Shown here piece by piece: positions 2,023 to 12,638 of a stretch of 40,807 nucleotides of DNA (position 1 is the first letter of the stretch; each line of letters opens with the position of its first letter). The stretch is taken from the NCBI GenBank assembly GCA_947624665.1, contig CANQLK010000002.1, forward strand, positions 1 through 40,807, read 5' to 3'. Position numbers and translations under genes: made by a program. The DNA comes from Candidatus Gastranaerophilales bacterium (GTDB taxonomy: Bacteria > Cyanobacteriota > Vampirovibrionia > Gastranaerophilales > Gastranaerophilaceae). The notes beneath the pieces were generated by a model. It was not told the DNA's origin. It saw nothing but the letters and a program-made list of their open reading frames with translations, and searched no databases.

Positions 2023-2198
2023 TATTTCTCCGAAAATTGTATGTTCAAAAATATTATATTAGATAAATAAAAATCAATAAAGACAGTATAAAAAACTTTA
2101 AATTAAGAAATGTAACGAAAATAAAAAAAATTGAAATCGGGGAAAAAATAAAGTTTTTATATAAATGTAGATAGAGAAAATAAACAGAGGGTAAAAAG

Positions 2199-2426
2199 AT
2201 GGGAAATGGAACATATATTCCGGTATTTAATGTAGCAAATATGGCAGGATATACTACAGTATTTTCCACCTCTAAGGGCGGAGAAACGGCAGGAAGCGTA
2301 GCAAGAAACGGAGCATCAACTTCATCAGGAAGTGCATTTCAAGGTGGAGAAACAGCAGGAAGCGTAGCTTGCGGCGGTTCTTCGGGCGGTTTTTCAGGCG
2401 GATGTTCTTACAGTGCAATTGCTTAG
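2199..2426 (+). CDS. Small Gly/Ser-rich peptide with tandem GGETAGSVA motif and C-terminal CGGSSGGFSGGC (possible modified-peptide precursor)
   Basis: 75-aa ORF with 'gaggg' RBS-like sequence just upstream of ATG; two in-frame copies of GGETAGSVA (2277-2303, 2343-2369); codon usage like neighbours; no credible competing ORF on the other strand. Confidence 0.6.
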   Translation: MGNGTYIPVFNVANMAGYTTVFSTSKGGETAGSVARNGASTSSGSAFQGGETAGSVACGGSSGGFSGGCSYSAIA

Positions 2427-2454: not shown

Positions 2455-2564
2455 TCACAAAATTTTTGATAACTGATTAATTTAATCTGGTGTCGCAACA
2501 TTACGCTTGTGCATATTGTAACCTTTTCAATACGCCACTCACAAAATTTTTGATAACTAATTAA
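2455..2564. repeat. Pair of 26-bp direct repeats TCACAAAATTTTTGATAACT(G/A)ATTAA (2455-2480 and 2539-2564) flanking dispersed repeat copy A
   Basis: Read directly; one mismatch between the two copies; 84-bp spacing start to start. Confidence 0.85.
2477..2509 (+). repeat. Dispersed repeat copy A (33-bp core TTAATTTAATCTGGTGTCGCAACATTACGCTTG)
   Basis: Identical over 33 bp to the reverse complement of 38958-38990; first part also at 12633-12652. Confidence 0.85.
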
Positions 2565-2580
2565 AATTTTAACGACATAG

Positions 2581-2616
2581 AAAAAGAAAGAGGCAGATTT
2601 TGCCTCTTTCTTTTTT
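2581..2616. terminator. Rho-independent (apparently bidirectional) terminator
   Basis: Perfect stem AAAAAGAAAGAGGCA / TGCCTCTTTCTTTTT with GATTT loop, T-run on either strand; lies 3' of the minus-strand zinc-ribbon gene and of the plus-strand peptide gene. Confidence 0.85.
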
Positions 2617-3157: not shown

Positions 3158-4270
3158 ATGGTCTATATAGCAGGAGTTCAAAGCAGAATTAACAATAGTG
3201 CGCCGTTATCTTTTAAAAAGAAAGAAGATAAAAAAGGAGCCTGTGAAAATAAGGATGAGCTTTTATATAAAGCAAGAAAAAATCACCCTGTTACATTGGG
3301 ATTAAAGATTCAGGCAAATAAACTGAAAAATGCCTTTACCACATATCCGATAAAAGGTTTGGAAGGAAGTAAAAATTCAAACTTCTACGAGTTTTTAACA
3401 ATGGGGATGGTTCCGTATTTGATAGGAAGCGGAGCAATGATAGCCGTATTCAATGCCGCAAGTGCTTTCTTTGATACGCAATCTGCCGTAAATGCTTCTA
3501 AAATAGGCAAAAAGATGGGACTTGGAGTTTTGTTCTACGGAGTAGCAAAAACTCTTTCAAAGAAATTAATCGAAACTCCCGTAAATTTAAAATACGGCAT
3601 AGATGTTAATTTACCGTACAAAAAGGTTATTAACGAATTACCCGAAAAAAGAAATAAAGATGATTTAGTTTCGTATGAATATCATAAGGCATACGAAAGT
3701 GTTGATTTCCCACGCTGGGATTTATTCTACAACAACAAGGATTTCGGTGAAAACAGAAACGATTATTATTTAAAAGTCGGAAAGAAAATGGGTTTTAACA
3801 ACGAAGATTTGGAACATGCCGATCAAAAAGTTAAACCCGTTATTAAAGAAAAAGTCATAAAAACTAGATTATTCTCTACATTAAGTTCATATTTATGGGC
3901 AGCAACAGGTGTAGGTATTGCTTCTCAAAAGCCGTGGGAAAATTTCGTCATAAATCCGTCTAAAAGATTTTTTAATTTTAAAAATTCACTAATAAATGCT
4001 AAAAAAGCAAAAGAAGCAGGAAATATTATTGCAAAGAATGACAATTTTGTTAAAGATTTTGCAAAAACTTTCGCAAAAAGTACAAAAGAATTTGTTAAAG
4101 GACATAACAAATCTACGGGTATTGCGGGAAAAATTTTGTTAAGTTCTGCAATTTGTATGACATTATTAGGAAATTTTTCAACTTTATTTGACTTTAATAA
4201 ATATAAGGGCAATAAAATTCAAGCGTCCGCTTCTATAATAGACGAAAACAAAAATAAGGTAGTATGCTGA
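3158..4270 (+). CDS. Hypothetical membrane protein, paralogous core with the downstream 784-aa protein
   Basis: 370-aa ORF with 'gaggaaaa' RBS; hydrophobic segments near the N-terminal third and C-terminus; N-terminal SFKKK motif. Confidence 0.8.
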   Translation: MVYIAGVQSRINNSAPLSFKKKEDKKGACENKDELLYKARKNHPVTLGLKIQANKLKNAFTTYPIKGLEGSKNSNFYEFLTMGMVPYLIGSGAMIAVFNAASAFFDTQSAVNASKIGKKMGLGVLFYGVAKTLSKKLIETPVNLKYGIDVNLPYKKVINELPEKRNKDDLVSYEYHKAYESVDFPRWDLFYNNKDFGENRNDYYLKVGKKMGFNNEDLEHADQKVKPVIKEKVIKTRLFSTLSSYLWAATGVGIASQKPWENFVINPSKRFFNFKNSLINAKKAKEAGNIIAKNDNFVKDFAKTFAKSTKEFVKGHNKSTGIAGKILLSSAICMTLLGNFSTLFDFNKYKGNKIQASASIIDENKNKVVC

Positions 4271-4271
4271 T

Positions 4272-6626
4272 ATGGCAAATGTATTAAACTCAATAGTATC
4301 AAATAAATCAATATATCCGAATAGCGGAAATAATATGCCTGCATATACCATAGATACGGAAGGCAAGGTAAAACCTTTGGAATATAAGGGAAAATTGTTA
4401 CCTTCAAGAATTATAGGATCTCCGATAGAATACGTAAAAGACCTTAAAAAGGATGTAGTCAGCATAGGTAAAGCTGCAAAAGGTGAAGCTAACGACCATG
4501 AACTCGGAAGAATAAATGATTTGGCTATGAAATTGGGTTCTTTAGGATTAGCCTCGTATTTATTTGTTAAAAATCCTTTAAAACTCAGCAAAGCAATGGA
4601 ATTTGCAGGTTTCGGAACCTTTTTTGCAGCAATGTCCTTGTGGCCCAAAATTGCAATACAAGCTCCATTAAAAGCAAGAACGGGTGTCGATATTCACCAA
4701 AAATATATTGATACTCAGGGTCGTAAAAAAATGTTATATCAAGATCCGCAATATGTTTTGACGGATTTGTATACAAAAGAAGATTTGGAAAAATTGGGAG
4801 ATAAACTTAAAGTAAGCAAAGATATTCCCGACAGAGATAATTTTACAAAACAAAGAGCGCAAAAAGTCGCATTACAAGGAAATACATTGTGGATGATGAC
4901 CGCAGGGTTTGCTTCTCCGTTAATGAGCGCTTTGGGTTGTAATGTGTTAGAAAAACCAATAGGTGCCGCAATTGAAAATTTGGATATGTTAACTTCCGAA
5001 AGAGCACTTAATTCGGGTAATTATCAGGGATTTTTCGGAAAAATCAAACAAAAATTTGCCGACAGATCATTCGCAAGATTTATTGAAAAAAATGCAAACA
5101 GAGCTTTAGATGATAGTTTAATAAAACAATTGAGAAACAGAATAACGGCTAATTCTTCTTTTGACCAGTTAGGTGATGCCGTTGTCGAAGAATTAAAATT
5201 GTTAAGAGAAAAATCTTCTTCTGTAGATTTAAACTTTGTTAAAAACGCATTAAAGGGAATAGTACCTGAGAATGTATTTGAATCTATGTCGCCCGAAGCA
5301 GCAGAGGCACTTAATCAAAGTATAAGCGAAGGCTCTTTTGACCATATAGCAAAAATAGTTTCGGGAGTTGTTCATACAAAACCCGGAAATAAGCAAAAGA
5401 AGTTAAGAGAAACTATTATAAAACAGTTAAATAATTATCAGTCTGAAAATTCTCCCGCATTGTCGGAAGTATCAAAATCAGTGAAAAAATTATATGAGGG
5501 TGTTGCCGAATTTTCTAAGGGTGAAAATGCTCTTAACCGCTTTATCAACTCAAGAGTAGGAAATAAATCAGGCAGCTTCGTTGCAAAACAATATGACAGA
5601 TTCGGAAACAGCTTGATGAAGTCACTTGGCTTTAATATGAAAGAATTAAGAGCTATTGCAAACGGTAATATCAATATTTTCACGGAAAGATTGGAAGCTG
5701 TTGCAAAAAATCCCGAACAATATGACAGAGCAGTTAGAAACTTAGCCCAGTTAACGGACAAATATGAACAAGTTACGGGAAAACAATTTATAGAAACAGT
5801 AAAATCAAAATCAGGCGAAATATATTCCGGTGCAAGTGAAAACATGAGAAAGAACGGATTTAAAATTATTGCCGAAAAAATTTCATCGGGAGCCGAAAAT
5901 GAAGCAGGAACAATGAAAAACTTTGTTAATTCCGAAGCTAAAAGAAACGGTCTCGGTGCAAAATCTTCATTCTACAGAGTTCTTCAAAATTTTGATATAT
6001 TCAACAGAGCCGCACAAAAAACCGATACCGGAATGAATTTATTGAAAAATCAACTCGAACAAGCAATGATAAACAACGGTGCAGGATGTGATTCCGCAAC
6101 ACTACAAAAATTGGAAGAAGCTTGCAAACGAATTCTTTTAACAGGTAATGCCAATACTCATACCGAAAAATTGGCAGAATTGTCGGACATTGAATATAAA
6201 GCCGTTATGGATGTCTTATTTGGTGAAAAATCATCAGGAATAAAAGAATCATTAACAAGGACATTGGGTAATGAAAAATCTAATGCGTTTATGAAAAATT
6301 TCAATGAATATCTGGGTGAGTTCAAAACAAAAGTGGCAAATTGGCAAAATGGTATGACAGCAAATTTATCAAGACGTGTTCATTCTCCGATAGACAATGC
6401 AGGAAAAATCTCAAACGGTATTGAAAGAAATAACATAATAGGACAGGAAACCAAAGATTTGGTTCAAGATATGGCAAAGAAAATGTATAACTCCAAGAAA
6501 TGGCTGCATATTTTTGGAGGTGCAATGGCTGTATTGACCGCCGTAACGTTAGTTGCAGGTCTTATGATAGGACGTAAAGGCGAAACGGAAAAACAGGTTG
6601 AAATGGAAAGCAGAAAAGATGGCTAA
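4272..6626 (+). CDS. Hypothetical membrane protein, long helical region and C-terminal TM
   Basis: 784-aa ORF starting 1 nt after the previous stop; C-terminal hydrophobic helix HIFGGAMAVLTAVTLVAGLMIG. Confidence 0.82.
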   Translation: MANVLNSIVSNKSIYPNSGNNMPAYTIDTEGKVKPLEYKGKLLPSRIIGSPIEYVKDLKKDVVSIGKAAKGEANDHELGRINDLAMKLGSLGLASYLFVKNPLKLSKAMEFAGFGTFFAAMSLWPKIAIQAPLKARTGVDIHQKYIDTQGRKKMLYQDPQYVLTDLYTKEDLEKLGDKLKVSKDIPDRDNFTKQRAQKVALQGNTLWMMTAGFASPLMSALGCNVLEKPIGAAIENLDMLTSERALNSGNYQGFFGKIKQKFADRSFARFIEKNANRALDDSLIKQLRNRITANSSFDQLGDAVVEELKLLREKSSSVDLNFVKNALKGIVPENVFESMSPEAAEALNQSISEGSFDHIAKIVSGVVHTKPGNKQKKLRETIIKQLNNYQSENSPALSEVSKSVKKLYEGVAEFSKGENALNRFINSRVGNKSGSFVAKQYDRFGNSLMKSLGFNMKELRAIANGNINIFTERLEAVAKNPEQYDRAVRNLAQLTDKYEQVTGKQFIETVKSKSGEIYSGASENMRKNGFKIIAEKISSGAENEAGTMKNFVNSEAKRNGLGAKSSFYRVLQNFDIFNRAAQKTDTGMNLLKNQLEQAMINNGAGCDSATLQKLEEACKRILLTGNANTHTEKLAELSDIEYKAVMDVLFGEKSSGIKESLTRTLGNEKSNAFMKNFNEYLGEFKTKVANWQNGMTANLSRRVHSPIDNAGKISNGIERNNIIGQETKDLVQDMAKKMYNSKKWLHIFGGAMAVLTAVTLVAGLMIGRKGETEKQVEMESRKDG

Positions 6627-8367
6627 TTATATTAACAAAATGATGAATAATGTTCTTCCGCAGCAAACACAAACAGTTTCTACGGTCAATCCTGCAATGA
6701 ATTATCAAGTTCCACAAACTGCTCAAACCGTTCAGGTTCAAACTTTAGGTTCCAATATACTTGAACAGTTCCTGCAAAACAGAGCTTTAATTGCCGTTCC
6801 AAGTGTTAATATTAAAGAAAATCCGAACGTTGAATATAAAAATAATCTGAGAACCAAATTTCAAAATAATGATGCCAAAATAATGGGTGTTATTATAAGA
6901 AGTCTTGGAGCTAAAGATAATACGGGAAATCAGCTTTTAAGAAAAGGTGATATAAGAGGCAATTTTAATAATGCAATAGAAAGGCTCGATGAAATGAAAA
7001 ATCTCGGGATTAACACATTGCATGTATTGCCAGTAAATCCTCCCGGAAAGAAAAATGCAATAGGAACGGCAGGTTCGGTTTATGCACCGGCTGATTTATT
7101 AAAAATAGATCCCGCTTTAGATGATCCTAATGACCCCAGAACCGTTAAAGAAGAATTTAAAAATTTCATTAATGAATGTCATAAACGTGGTATCAGCGTA
7201 ATGCTTGATTTACCCAGCTGTGCTTCTTACGATTTATTTTTGGAAAGACCCGAGTTAATGGCATTTGACAAGGATGGAACCCCCAAAACTCCCGGAGGTT
7301 GGGCTGATATCAGAATGTTTAATCCTTGGAAAGATGAGTCTAAACGTGAATTAAATCCTGATTTATTGCAATATCACAAAGATTTTGTTGATATGTGTTT
7401 GGATTTGGGCGTTGACGGTATAAGAAGCGATGTTGCGAGGACAAAACCGACCGAATTTTGGGATATTTTGGTAAAATATTCAAGAGAAAAAGACCCCGAA
7501 TTCGCTTGGTTAGCCGAAAGCTACACTTATGAAGATGCTTCTCCCCAACTTAATATGAACTATGACCGCCCTGAAGATTCCTTAAGAGCAGGTTTTGACA
7601 GCTTCTACGGTCAATACCATAATTTCCACGAATGGCTTAAGGCAGAAGACTTAGTTAATTATGTAAGAGAAAATATAGAAATGTCCGATAAACTTGATGC
7701 GGGCAAATCTTTAATAGGTTCTTTCGGTACTCATGATGATATTTCAATTATGAATCATGGCGGAGTCACCTATTCTAACCTTGTTTCAGGACTTCAAGCA
7801 ACTCTTCCGATGTTAAATCCTTATTATTTTGACGGATACCAGACCGGTGATGACTATATTTATGATTTTGAAAATGAACACGATCAAGAATCCGATACCG
7901 ATTCCGATGAATGCACCGTTCACCATGGCAGACCCGATATATTTAATTACTCAAGACCTTTAATAGGAAAACATCCCGAAATCGGCGATTTTATGAAAAA
8001 TACTCTGGATATCAGAAGCAATCCTAAATATCATGATATCTTAACAAAAGGCTCTTTCATTCCTTTAAAAACAAATAATAAAGATGATCAAATCATAGCT
8101 TTTGCAAGACATTATAACGGAAAAACATTGGTTGTCATCGCAAACAGAGATGTCAATGCCGTTCAAAGCGGTAATGTATTTATTCCCGGCTTAAATCAAA
8201 ATCAACAGCTTACTAATTTATTTAATTCTTATGGCGAAGATTCAACTATTCAGGCTGATGAAGGTAAGTTTAATGTCGATCTCGGCCCGGGGCGTATCCA
8301 TTTGTTTGAAGTAGATACCCCTGATATTGAAAATTCAGGACTCGAAGTTCTTAAACAAAAATTATAG
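6619..8367 (+). CDS. Divergent GH13 (alpha-amylase superfamily) protein, GlgE-like motifs
   Basis: Likely start ATG 6619 (MANYINKMM), overlapping the previous stop; region I VMLDLPSCASYDLF, region II GVDGIRSDVARTKPTEFWDIL, region III FAWLAESYTYED, region IV GTHDD. Confidence 0.88.
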   Translation: MANYINKMMNNVLPQQTQTVSTVNPAMNYQVPQTAQTVQVQTLGSNILEQFLQNRALIAVPSVNIKENPNVEYKNNLRTKFQNNDAKIMGVIIRSLGAKDNTGNQLLRKGDIRGNFNNAIERLDEMKNLGINTLHVLPVNPPGKKNAIGTAGSVYAPADLLKIDPALDDPNDPRTVKEEFKNFINECHKRGISVMLDLPSCASYDLFLERPELMAFDKDGTPKTPGGWADIRMFNPWKDESKRELNPDLLQYHKDFVDMCLDLGVDGIRSDVARTKPTEFWDILVKYSREKDPEFAWLAESYTYEDASPQLNMNYDRPEDSLRAGFDSFYGQYHNFHEWLKAEDLVNYVRENIEMSDKLDAGKSLIGSFGTHDDISIMNHGGVTYSNLVSGLQATLPMLNPYYFDGYQTGDDYIYDFENEHDQESDTDSDECTVHHGRPDIFNYSRPLIGKHPEIGDFMKNTLDIRSNPKYHDILTKGSFIPLKTNNKDDQIIAFARHYNGKTLVVIANRDVNAVQSGNVFIPGLNQNQQLTNLFNSYGEDSTIQADEGKFNVDLGPGRIHLFEVDTPDIENSGLEVLKQKL

Positions 8368-8377
8368 GAATACTATC

Positions 8378-8686
8378 ATGAATGTTCAATTAAATCCTAT
8401 TATCAACAAATATAATTATGTTTCTTTTAAAAAATCCGTTCTGGAACAATATGAAAAAGAAAATTCTTCCGGTTCATTCAGTAAAGATGAAATAACATTA
8501 GCCAGAACAAAAAAAGTAATATCCGAACTTAAATATATTGCTCTGGGTGTTATTATTCTGTATTTCGCAATGAAAAAAAATATTAAAATTAATAACTTAA
8601 AGAAGGAAGCAGAAAAAGCCAAAAAGCTCGCCGATTTGGAAAAACCCGTTACTATCGACTTTTCCGCTCTATTAAAAGATGCTTAA
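8378..8686 (+). CDS. Small membrane protein, hypothetical
   Basis: Likely start ATG 8378 (MNVQLNPIINKYNYVSFKKS); single TM YIALGVIILYFAM; stop overlaps that of convergent deoC. Confidence 0.7.
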   Translation: MNVQLNPIINKYNYVSFKKSVLEQYEKENSSGSFSKDEITLARTKKVISELKYIALGVIILYFAMKKNIKINNLKKEAEKAKKLADLEKPVTIDFSALLKDA

Positions 8687-11206: not shown

Positions 11207-11504
11207 TTAGCAACTCCTTACATTTACAGTATATTATTTTTTCCCAGATAAAGAAAATAATTAACAAATATAAATGATATTGATGTACAAGAACTTGCAG
11301 TTTTGTTGTTTTGAACATTTAGTTTGATATTACAATGGCAAGACTTTGATTATGGTGTAAGCTGACAAGTTCGGATTAGCAATGCGTTACACAAGATTTT
11401 CTTTTATTATTAATTTAATTTTATGCGACAATTTACAAAATAATATCTTTTGTTTAAAATTTAAGTTATTAAAAATATTAAAATGTATTATTTTAAATTA
11501 TAAA

Positions 11505-12638
11505 ATGAGAGATATTGAACCTACAGATAAAATTCAAAATCAAAAGGATATAGATGTCCAAGAATTCGGAGTTTGTCCGATGATTTTTAGCTCAATGGAA
11601 GTAAGAATGGACGGAAATGCTTATTTTTGCTGCGAACACAAATATAATAATTTATCACTGGGCAATATATATAAAGATGATTTAAACGACATTTGGAATT
11701 CTAAATTAGCTGTAACCATAAGAGAAGAAGCACTAAAAGGTAAATATCCGTATTGTAAAGGAAATGTCTGCCTTAGACTGGCAAAAGAAATCCCTGATTT
11801 TGTCTCCGTTAAAAGTATTTTTATCCCCCATCCCGAACCCGTTATGACGAAGACACCTTATTATATTGCCATATCTAAAATAAAAGATTGTAATGCACGA
11901 TGCATATTTTGTAGTGATGAAATTTATAAAACACCCGATAATGAATTGAATAATATTATTTCTATATTGAAAAATTATAAGGATTTAAAGTGTTTAACCA
12001 TATGGGACTCAGGTGATGCATTCTCTCTTATTTCCCAAAAATTTATTAAATTAATTTCGGAAGAATTTCCCGATTTGCGCTTTAAATTAATGACAAACGG
12101 AATCCTGGCAGACAAAGAAACAATAAATAGATTAAATCTCGTAAACAGAATTGAAGAACTGGATATTTCCATAAACGCAGTAAATGCAGCTACTCATAAT
12201 AAAATTTTCAGAACAGGTAAAAACGCTTTTAAAAAATTAATAAAAAACCTTGAATATATAAAAACCCTTAAAATAAATACATTCAACATTAATTTTGTCG
12301 TATGTAAATATAATTGGAAAGAGATGAAAAAATTTATTAAATTAGGCAAAAAATATAATGCCAGAGTCTTGTTTTGGGAAGTACGACTTTATGGAAATTC
12401 AGACAAACTTCAATATGACTATTATGATATAGCTGTACATCTTCGGTTTCATAAAGATTATAAAAAATTTAAAAAATATTTGTCATCAAAAGTTTTTGAA
12501 GATGAAAATATTATCATGTCACCTGTTCTGAAAAAGTTAAGATATGAGAGCTTGAACGAAAAAAAGTTTTCCTTGGATTTTGTTAACTTTTTAACAAAAT
12601 TTCATATTAGATTGACAAACAAAGAAAATAAAATTTAA
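11505..12638 (+). CDS. Radical SAM protein with N-terminal SPASM-like Cys cluster
   Basis: CxxxCxxC core motif (KDCNARCIFC); preceding SPASM-like CPMIFSSMEVRMDGNAYFCC...LGNIYKDDLNDIWNS...YCKGNVC. Start chosen at MRDIEPT (ORF track opens at 11382). Confidence 0.85.
   Translation: MRDIEPTDKIQNQKDIDVQEFGVCPMIFSSMEVRMDGNAYFCCEHKYNNLSLGNIYKDDLNDIWNSKLAVTIREEALKGKYPYCKGNVCLRLAKEIPDFVSVKSIFIPHPEPVMTKTPYYIAISKIKDCNARCIFCSDEIYKTPDNELNNIISILKNYKDLKCLTIWDSGDAFSLISQKFIKLISEEFPDLRFKLMTNGILADKETINRLNLVNRIEELDISINAVNAATHNKIFRTGKNAFKKLIKNLEYIKTLKINTFNINFVVCKYNWKEMKKFIKLGKKYNARVLFWEVRLYGNSDKLQYDYYDIAVHLRFHKDYKKFKKYLSSKVFEDENIIMSPVLKKLRYESLNEKKFSLDFVNFLTKFHIRLTNKENKI

What the first reader, a model, noticed from the sequence alone, without database searches (positions are those of the whole stretch)
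2199..2426. Gly/Ser-rich 75-aa peptide with GGETAGSVA duplication and CGG-x-GGC tail: possible RiPP-like precursor
Seen: good RBS, ORF with two identical GGETAGSVA nonapeptides 22 residues apart, ending ...GSVACGGSSGGFSGGCSYSAIA with only two Cys. Knowledge: duplicated core segments and Gly/Ser/Cys-rich C-termini after a conserved leader are typical of ribosomally made, modified peptides. Inference: precursor peptide or small secreted/structural repeat peptide; no modifying enzyme is adjacent, though a radical SAM-SPASM protein is encoded about 9 kb away.
Basis: partly seen in the sequence, partly recalled or inferred. Interest (0 to 1): 0.6.

Follow-up and report, generated by a model that had tools for sequence, protein, structure and literature searches.

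The report
New repeat-peptide family with shared promoter
This small gut-bacterial gene is real and belongs to an undescribed family of short, Gly/Ser-rich proteins built from a repeated 'ETAGSVA' motif, switched on by a promoter shared with other proteins that look exported without the usual signal; it is probably an exported structural peptide rather than a modified antibiotic-like peptide.

Summary
The ORF (2199-2426, +, 75 aa, two identical GGETAGSVA copies) is confirmed and is a translated gene: close relatives show dN/dS 0.09-0.38. It belongs to a family matching nothing in Pfam, NCBIfam, PHROGs or PDB, found in 26 of 41 genomes of its genus and, by profile, in 88 of 383 genomes (15 genera) of the gut order Gastranaerophilales. 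Members (52-138 aa) carry usually two, up to seven, copies of E[TS]AG[ST][VLI]A at 10-11-residue spacing, plus a Gly/Ser tail ending in a short conserved motif (SFSAIA-like). The RiPP reading is not supported: N-terminal region, linkers and Cys are not conserved; no shared neighbour is an enzyme; rSAM, YcaO and C39 genes do not track the peptide. A three-part promoter element with near-constant spacing precedes nearly all members. Using it as a probe found further members missed by the profile, and other unrelated proteins almost all lacking Sec signals. All 39 genomes tested carry a flagellum-like type III export gate, 37% identical to the true flagellar FlhA where both occur. Best reading: an exported, disordered repeat peptide, probably a type III substrate, acting outside the cell. 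Gene, family and promoter are shown; export route and function are inferred.

The parts
2199..2426 (+). 75-aa ORF, ETAGSVA-repeat peptide
   Evidence: dN/dS 0.09-0.38
2277..2303 (+). GGETAGSVA copy 1 (residues 27-35)
   Evidence: conserved in the family
2343..2369 (+). GGETAGSVA copy 2 (residues 49-57); the 13 residues between the copies look like a degenerate repeat
2406..2423 (+). conserved C-terminal motif SYSAIA
2186..2191 (+). ribosome-binding site AGAGGG
   Evidence: GGAG-type sites at the same place in relatives
2100..2169 (+). conserved promoter element (model R1): TTAAGAAATGTAACGAAA (2103-2120), TTGAAAT (2131-2137), GTTTTTATATA (2153-2163)
   Evidence: the only strong R1 match in the window, 47.6 bits, next 10.7
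2581..2615 (.). perfect 15-bp inverted repeat with T/A runs, likely terminator shared with the convergent zinc-ribbon gene

Best explanation
The gene encodes a small, probably disordered structural peptide of a new family: a variable N-terminal segment, 10-11-residue repeats with the conserved core E[TS]AG[ST][VLI]A, and a flexible Gly/Ser tail ending in a short conserved motif. It is made from a dedicated conserved promoter together with a small set of other proteins without Sec signals. The most likely mechanism is export in unfolded form through the non-flagellar, flagellum-like type III export apparatus that these bacteria all carry, followed by a role outside the cell, such as surface coat, adhesion or beta-type self-association through the repeats. 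Shown here: gene, family, selection, promoter element, absence of Sec-type N-termini, presence of the export gate. Inferred: that the shared promoter marks export substrates, the export route, and the outside role.
For: Purifying selection concentrated on repeats and C-terminus: pN/pS 0.18 and 0.22 against 0.76 elsewhere. In 65 members, 176 motif copies with invariant G (the search pattern required it), spaced mostly 10-11 or 21-23 residues. Promoter element aligned upstream of 59 of 65 members from many genera while the peptides diverge. The promoter as a probe found ETAG-containing peptides in G064, G066 and G067, which the profile had not listed as hits, plus coiled-coil, 55-aa, glycine-zipper and repeat proteins. 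Simple Sec-signal test: 0 of 65 peptides, 1 of 48 other promoter-linked proteins, 119 of 668 background genes. N-termini Ser/Thr/Asn-rich (35% and 31% against 20%) and poor in charge, as in type III substrates (general knowledge). FlhA-type gate protein in 39 of 39 genomes, as fragments at contig ends in the window's own. Own-genome cluster of FlgB/C/F/G-like, SLT, FliE, FliF, FliH, FlhA and FliI ATPase genes. This FlhA is a separate clade, 36-38% identical to the flagellar one. No confident globular fold: pLDDT 45 and 38.
Against: The link to type III export is indirect. The export operon itself has no R1 promoter. The export gate is also present in genomes without the peptide, so its presence does not discriminate. 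The promoter could simply be a strong or alternative-sigma promoter. At least one R1 hit lies before a gene with a Sec signal (L201) and some before CopG-like regulators. Second copies in one genus lack the promoter. The peptide is missing from many genomes of the genus, so it is not essential.
Confidence: 0.42

Rival explanations
1. RiPP precursor: the peptide is modified by an unlinked enzyme and cut into a small product; either the repeats are cores, or they are recognition sites around variable cores.
For: Repeats flank variable segments; tail rich in Ser, Gly and Cys; some precursors elsewhere are unlinked to their enzymes (general knowledge); rSAM-SPASM proteins are common in the genus.
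Against: No conserved leader, no conserved Cys, no shared neighbouring enzyme; rSAM relative, YcaO and C39 absent from many peptide-bearing genomes.
Confidence: 0.15
2. Cytoplasmic small protein: the repeats bind a partner (protein, membrane or nucleic acid) inside the cell, and the promoter is a stress or growth-phase promoter.
For: No Sec signal; conserved Glu/Thr/Gly motif; a zinc-ribbon gene lies next to it in several genera.
Against: Composition (Gly/Ser tail, few charges) and the kinds of genes sharing the promoter; the neighbouring zinc-ribbon gene stays in genomes without the peptide.
Confidence: 0.22
3. Self-assembling surface amyloid or adhesin exported by another, unknown route.
For: Tandem 10-11-residue repeats with Ser/Gly/Ala and beta-branched residues; strands placed at each repeat in the low-confidence model; repeat-number variation between genera.
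Against: No Sec signal, so not a curli-like route; model confidence too low to support a fold.
Confidence: 0.17

Closest known systems
Microcin B17-type and other Gly/Ser/Cys-rich RiPP precursors
   Same: Short; Gly/Ser/Cys-rich C-terminus; no Sec signal
   Different: No conserved leader; Cys not conserved; no YcaO in most carriers; housekeeping neighbourhood
Multi-core RiPP precursors such as cyanobactins
   Same: Conserved short repeats around variable segments
   Different: No linked protease or modifying enzyme; conserved C-terminal motif; repeat number from one to seven with near-regular 10-11 spacing
Flagellar and injectisome type III substrates
   Same: No cleavable signal; disordered Ser/Thr-rich N-terminus; export apparatus in the genome
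   Different: No sequence similarity found to any known substrate family; export not shown
Functional amyloids such as curli
   Same: Gly/Ser-rich tandem repeats, possibly beta-forming
   Different: Repeat length and sequence differ; no Sec signal; no curli-like accessory genes seen nearby
Partial flagellar gene sets reported in Gastranaerophilales (PMC3787301, PMC4040986)
   Same: Same kind of gene set in the same order of bacteria; read there as loss of flagella
   Different: Here the non-flagellar FlhA forms its own clade and coexists with the flagellar FlhA, so it is not simply a decayed flagellum

Membership tests
RiPP precursor | conserved leader, variable core | tested here: not met
   Leader 34% mean identity, repeats 86-99%
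RiPP precursor | linked or co-occurring modifying enzyme | tested here: not met
   No shared enzyme neighbour; rSAM relative and YcaO not tracking. Other enzyme classes not tested
RiPP precursor | modified mature product | not testable with these tools
   needs mass spectrometry
Cys-dependent RiPP classes (lanthipeptide, sactipeptide, thiazole type) | conserved Cys in the core | tested here: not met
   12 of 65 peptides have no Cys
Double-glycine leader peptides | GG site with a C39 peptidase/transporter | tested here: not met
   GG before repeat 1 is not universal; C39 in 9 of 40 genomes, including peptide-less ones
Type III secretion substrate | no Sec signal; disordered Ser/Thr-rich N-terminus | tested here: met
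   0 of 65 Sec-like; S+T+N 35% against 20% background
Type III secretion substrate | export apparatus in the same genomes | tested here: met
   39 of 39 genomes; own-genome cluster
Type III secretion substrate | secretion depends on the apparatus | not testable with these tools
   needs mutants and a culture
Functional amyloid (curli type) | Sec signal and dedicated secretion pore | tested here: not met
   No Sec signal; no such genes among shared neighbours
Regulatory RNA | conservation of RNA rather than protein | tested here: not met
   dN/dS 0.09-0.38; no Rfam match over its gathering score

The most novel reading that the evidence does not exclude
The ETAGSVA peptides and their promoter partners are the substrates of a non-motile, flagellum-derived secretion organelle that is universal in gut Gastranaerophilaceae and was previously taken for remains of lost flagella; the peptides form part of its extracellular structure or coat.
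Probability: 0.2. Interest if true: 0.85.

Novelty: new variant of a known kind. Interest (0 to 1): 0.58.

Why it matters
It adds an unannotated small-protein family, with a recognisable promoter, to a hard-to-culture gut lineage. The promoter is a handle for finding co-expressed, probably exported proteins without database homologues. It also makes testable whether the 'partial flagella' of non-motile Gastranaerophilales are a working secretion system.

Tried and rejected
Database families: no match for the peptide in Pfam, NCBIfam, PHROGs or PDB, none in phage records and none confirmed in viral contigs. Regulatory RNA: only sub-threshold Rfam matches. Conserved neighbour enzyme: none; upstream neighbours change between genera while the peptide stays. 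rSAM partner: dropped. Double-glycine export: dropped. YcaO: dropped. AlphaFold2 on the window peptide and on a seven-repeat member: both low confidence, so no fold search was made. R1 promoter on the type III operon: none found. Papers: nothing found on these peptides; flagellar loss in this order is described in PMC3787301 and PMC4040986. A resemblance of the TTGTAACAA part of the promoter to cyanobacterial regulator sites was considered from memory and not tested.

Full report
Observation. The ORF at 2199-2426 is as described: a 75-aa frame with an AGAGGG ribosome-binding site and two identical GGETAGSVA nonapeptides 22 residues apart. A repeat this long did not appear in 20,000 shuffles. 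The genome has one copy.

It is a gene. A single-sequence search found matches in 21 of 58 genomes (the window's own included), all in one genus; a profile raised this to 26 of 41 in the genus. Public records name most carriers Candidatus Gastranaerophilales. Close pairs give dN/dS of 0.09-0.38. Pooled over all pairs, pN/pS is 0.18 in the repeats, 0.22 in the last seven columns and 0.76 elsewhere. Invariant residues use several codons.

Locus. In the genus the gene sits between hom (divergent) and a small zinc-ribbon gene (convergent), with conserved housekeeping genes around. Eight genomes keep a hom/zinc-ribbon interval in which I saw no recognisable peptide; others have diverged versions, one with five TAGT[IL]A-type repeats. 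In other genera the upstream neighbours are different, for example dnaJ/grpE. The zinc-ribbon gene is next to the peptide in at least four genera, but it also stays when the peptide is absent.

Family. An order-wide profile search matched 88 of 383 genomes in 15 of 52 genera. Many are weak matches, but the ORFs read from 36 of the 38 regions fetched around profile hits are small and carry the motif; two (L171, L173) were not read because of stops in the match. In 65 peptides I counted 176 motif copies by a pattern that fixes G: A in 175 at the last position, E in 167 at the first. Copies are spaced mostly 10-11 or 21-23 residues apart, up to seven per protein. Twelve peptides have no Cys. Nothing in Pfam, NCBIfam, PHROGs or PDB matches the window peptide. 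AlphaFold2 gives no confident fold.

Promoter. Upstream DNA is more conserved than most of the peptide: TTAAGAATGTAACAAAA, then TGAAATT, then AAATGTTTTTATATA, at near-constant spacing. A simple pattern for it occurs about once per genome in the genus, mostly at this gene, and led to two further repeat peptides upstream of a phosphoglycerate mutase gene. The element aligned in 59 of 65 members. A sequence model of it (R1) searched in 22 genomes again had the window gene as the best hit in its own genome. In three genomes of two genera with no listed profile hit (G064, G066, G067) it found ETAG-containing peptides. It also found other families: MGYALFAQRKI-type coiled coils (one in the window's own genome), ~108- and ~130-aa coiled coils, 55-aa proteins, MTVSFQNGS proteins with a C-terminal glycine zipper, and RTX-like repeat proteins. 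By a simple rule only 1 of 48 of these, and 0 of 65 peptides, looks Sec-exported, against 18% of background genes. The model was built from peptide promoters, so its hits at those peptides are by construction; hits at unrelated genes, and at peptides not used in it, are the informative ones.

Export apparatus. Every one of 39 genomes tested has an FlhA-family protein; several from other genera have two full-length ones. The two kinds are 36-38% identical to each other but 67-87% and 82-96% within kind. In the window's genome the non-flagellar kind lies, split over contig ends, in a cluster with FliI, FliH, FliF, FliE, a transglycosylase and FlgB/C/F/G-like rod proteins. Earlier papers read partial flagellar sets in this order as loss (PMC3787301, PMC4040986). 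Coexistence of both kinds in one genome argues for a separate system, though I have not surveyed hook or filament genes.

Interpretation. An exported repeat peptide fits composition, selection pattern, lack of Sec signal and company under the promoter. Type III export is the most economical route but rests on co-presence and N-terminal composition only; the export operon does not carry the promoter. The RiPP reading fails on leader, Cys, neighbourhood and three enzyme tests, but not every enzyme class was tested.

Limits. The genomes appear to be metagenome assemblies, the window's own is 88% complete, absences are soft, and E-values of the promoter model are rough.

Noticed in passing
window 2455-2474 and 2539-2558: Identical 20-bp direct repeats TCACAAAATTTTTGATAACT, 84 bp apart, between the peptide and the terminator-like inverted repeat. 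Not searched genome-wide.
   Followed up: no
L268, L269 (window's own genome, other contigs); L259, L265, L266: Flagellum-like type III cluster with its own FlhA clade, FlhA-family proteins being present in all genomes tested.
   Followed up: partly
L236, L239, L241, L250; L271:8193-8480: Coiled-coil proteins of the MGYALFAQRKI type with a conserved C-terminal end like ATPKYNGVG, under the R1 promoter; a short protein in L271 has a similar ending.
   Followed up: partly
L098 (G022), same locus as the window peptide: A CHAP/NlpC-like ORF (judged by eye, not scanned) without a Sec signal lies where the peptide is in other species; a weak partial R1 match is in the same locus.
   Followed up: no
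L196 (G003): R1-like promoter before a small protein made of DMDLDR tandem repeats.
   Followed up: no
window 3158-4270, 4272-6626, 8327-8686: Conserved unknown proteins in synteny with the peptide; some start with short N-terminal motifs such as SFKK or YVSFKKS, loosely like the YVSLLS of the peptides.
   Followed up: no
window 11382-12638: rSAM-SPASM protein whose best relative in the genus is 46% identical, while more distant paralogues are abundant, often in clusters.
   Followed up: partly
G059 (L085) against L004 and L005: The G059 peptide looks mosaic: its N-terminus matches L004, the rest matches L005, suggesting recombination.
   Followed up: no
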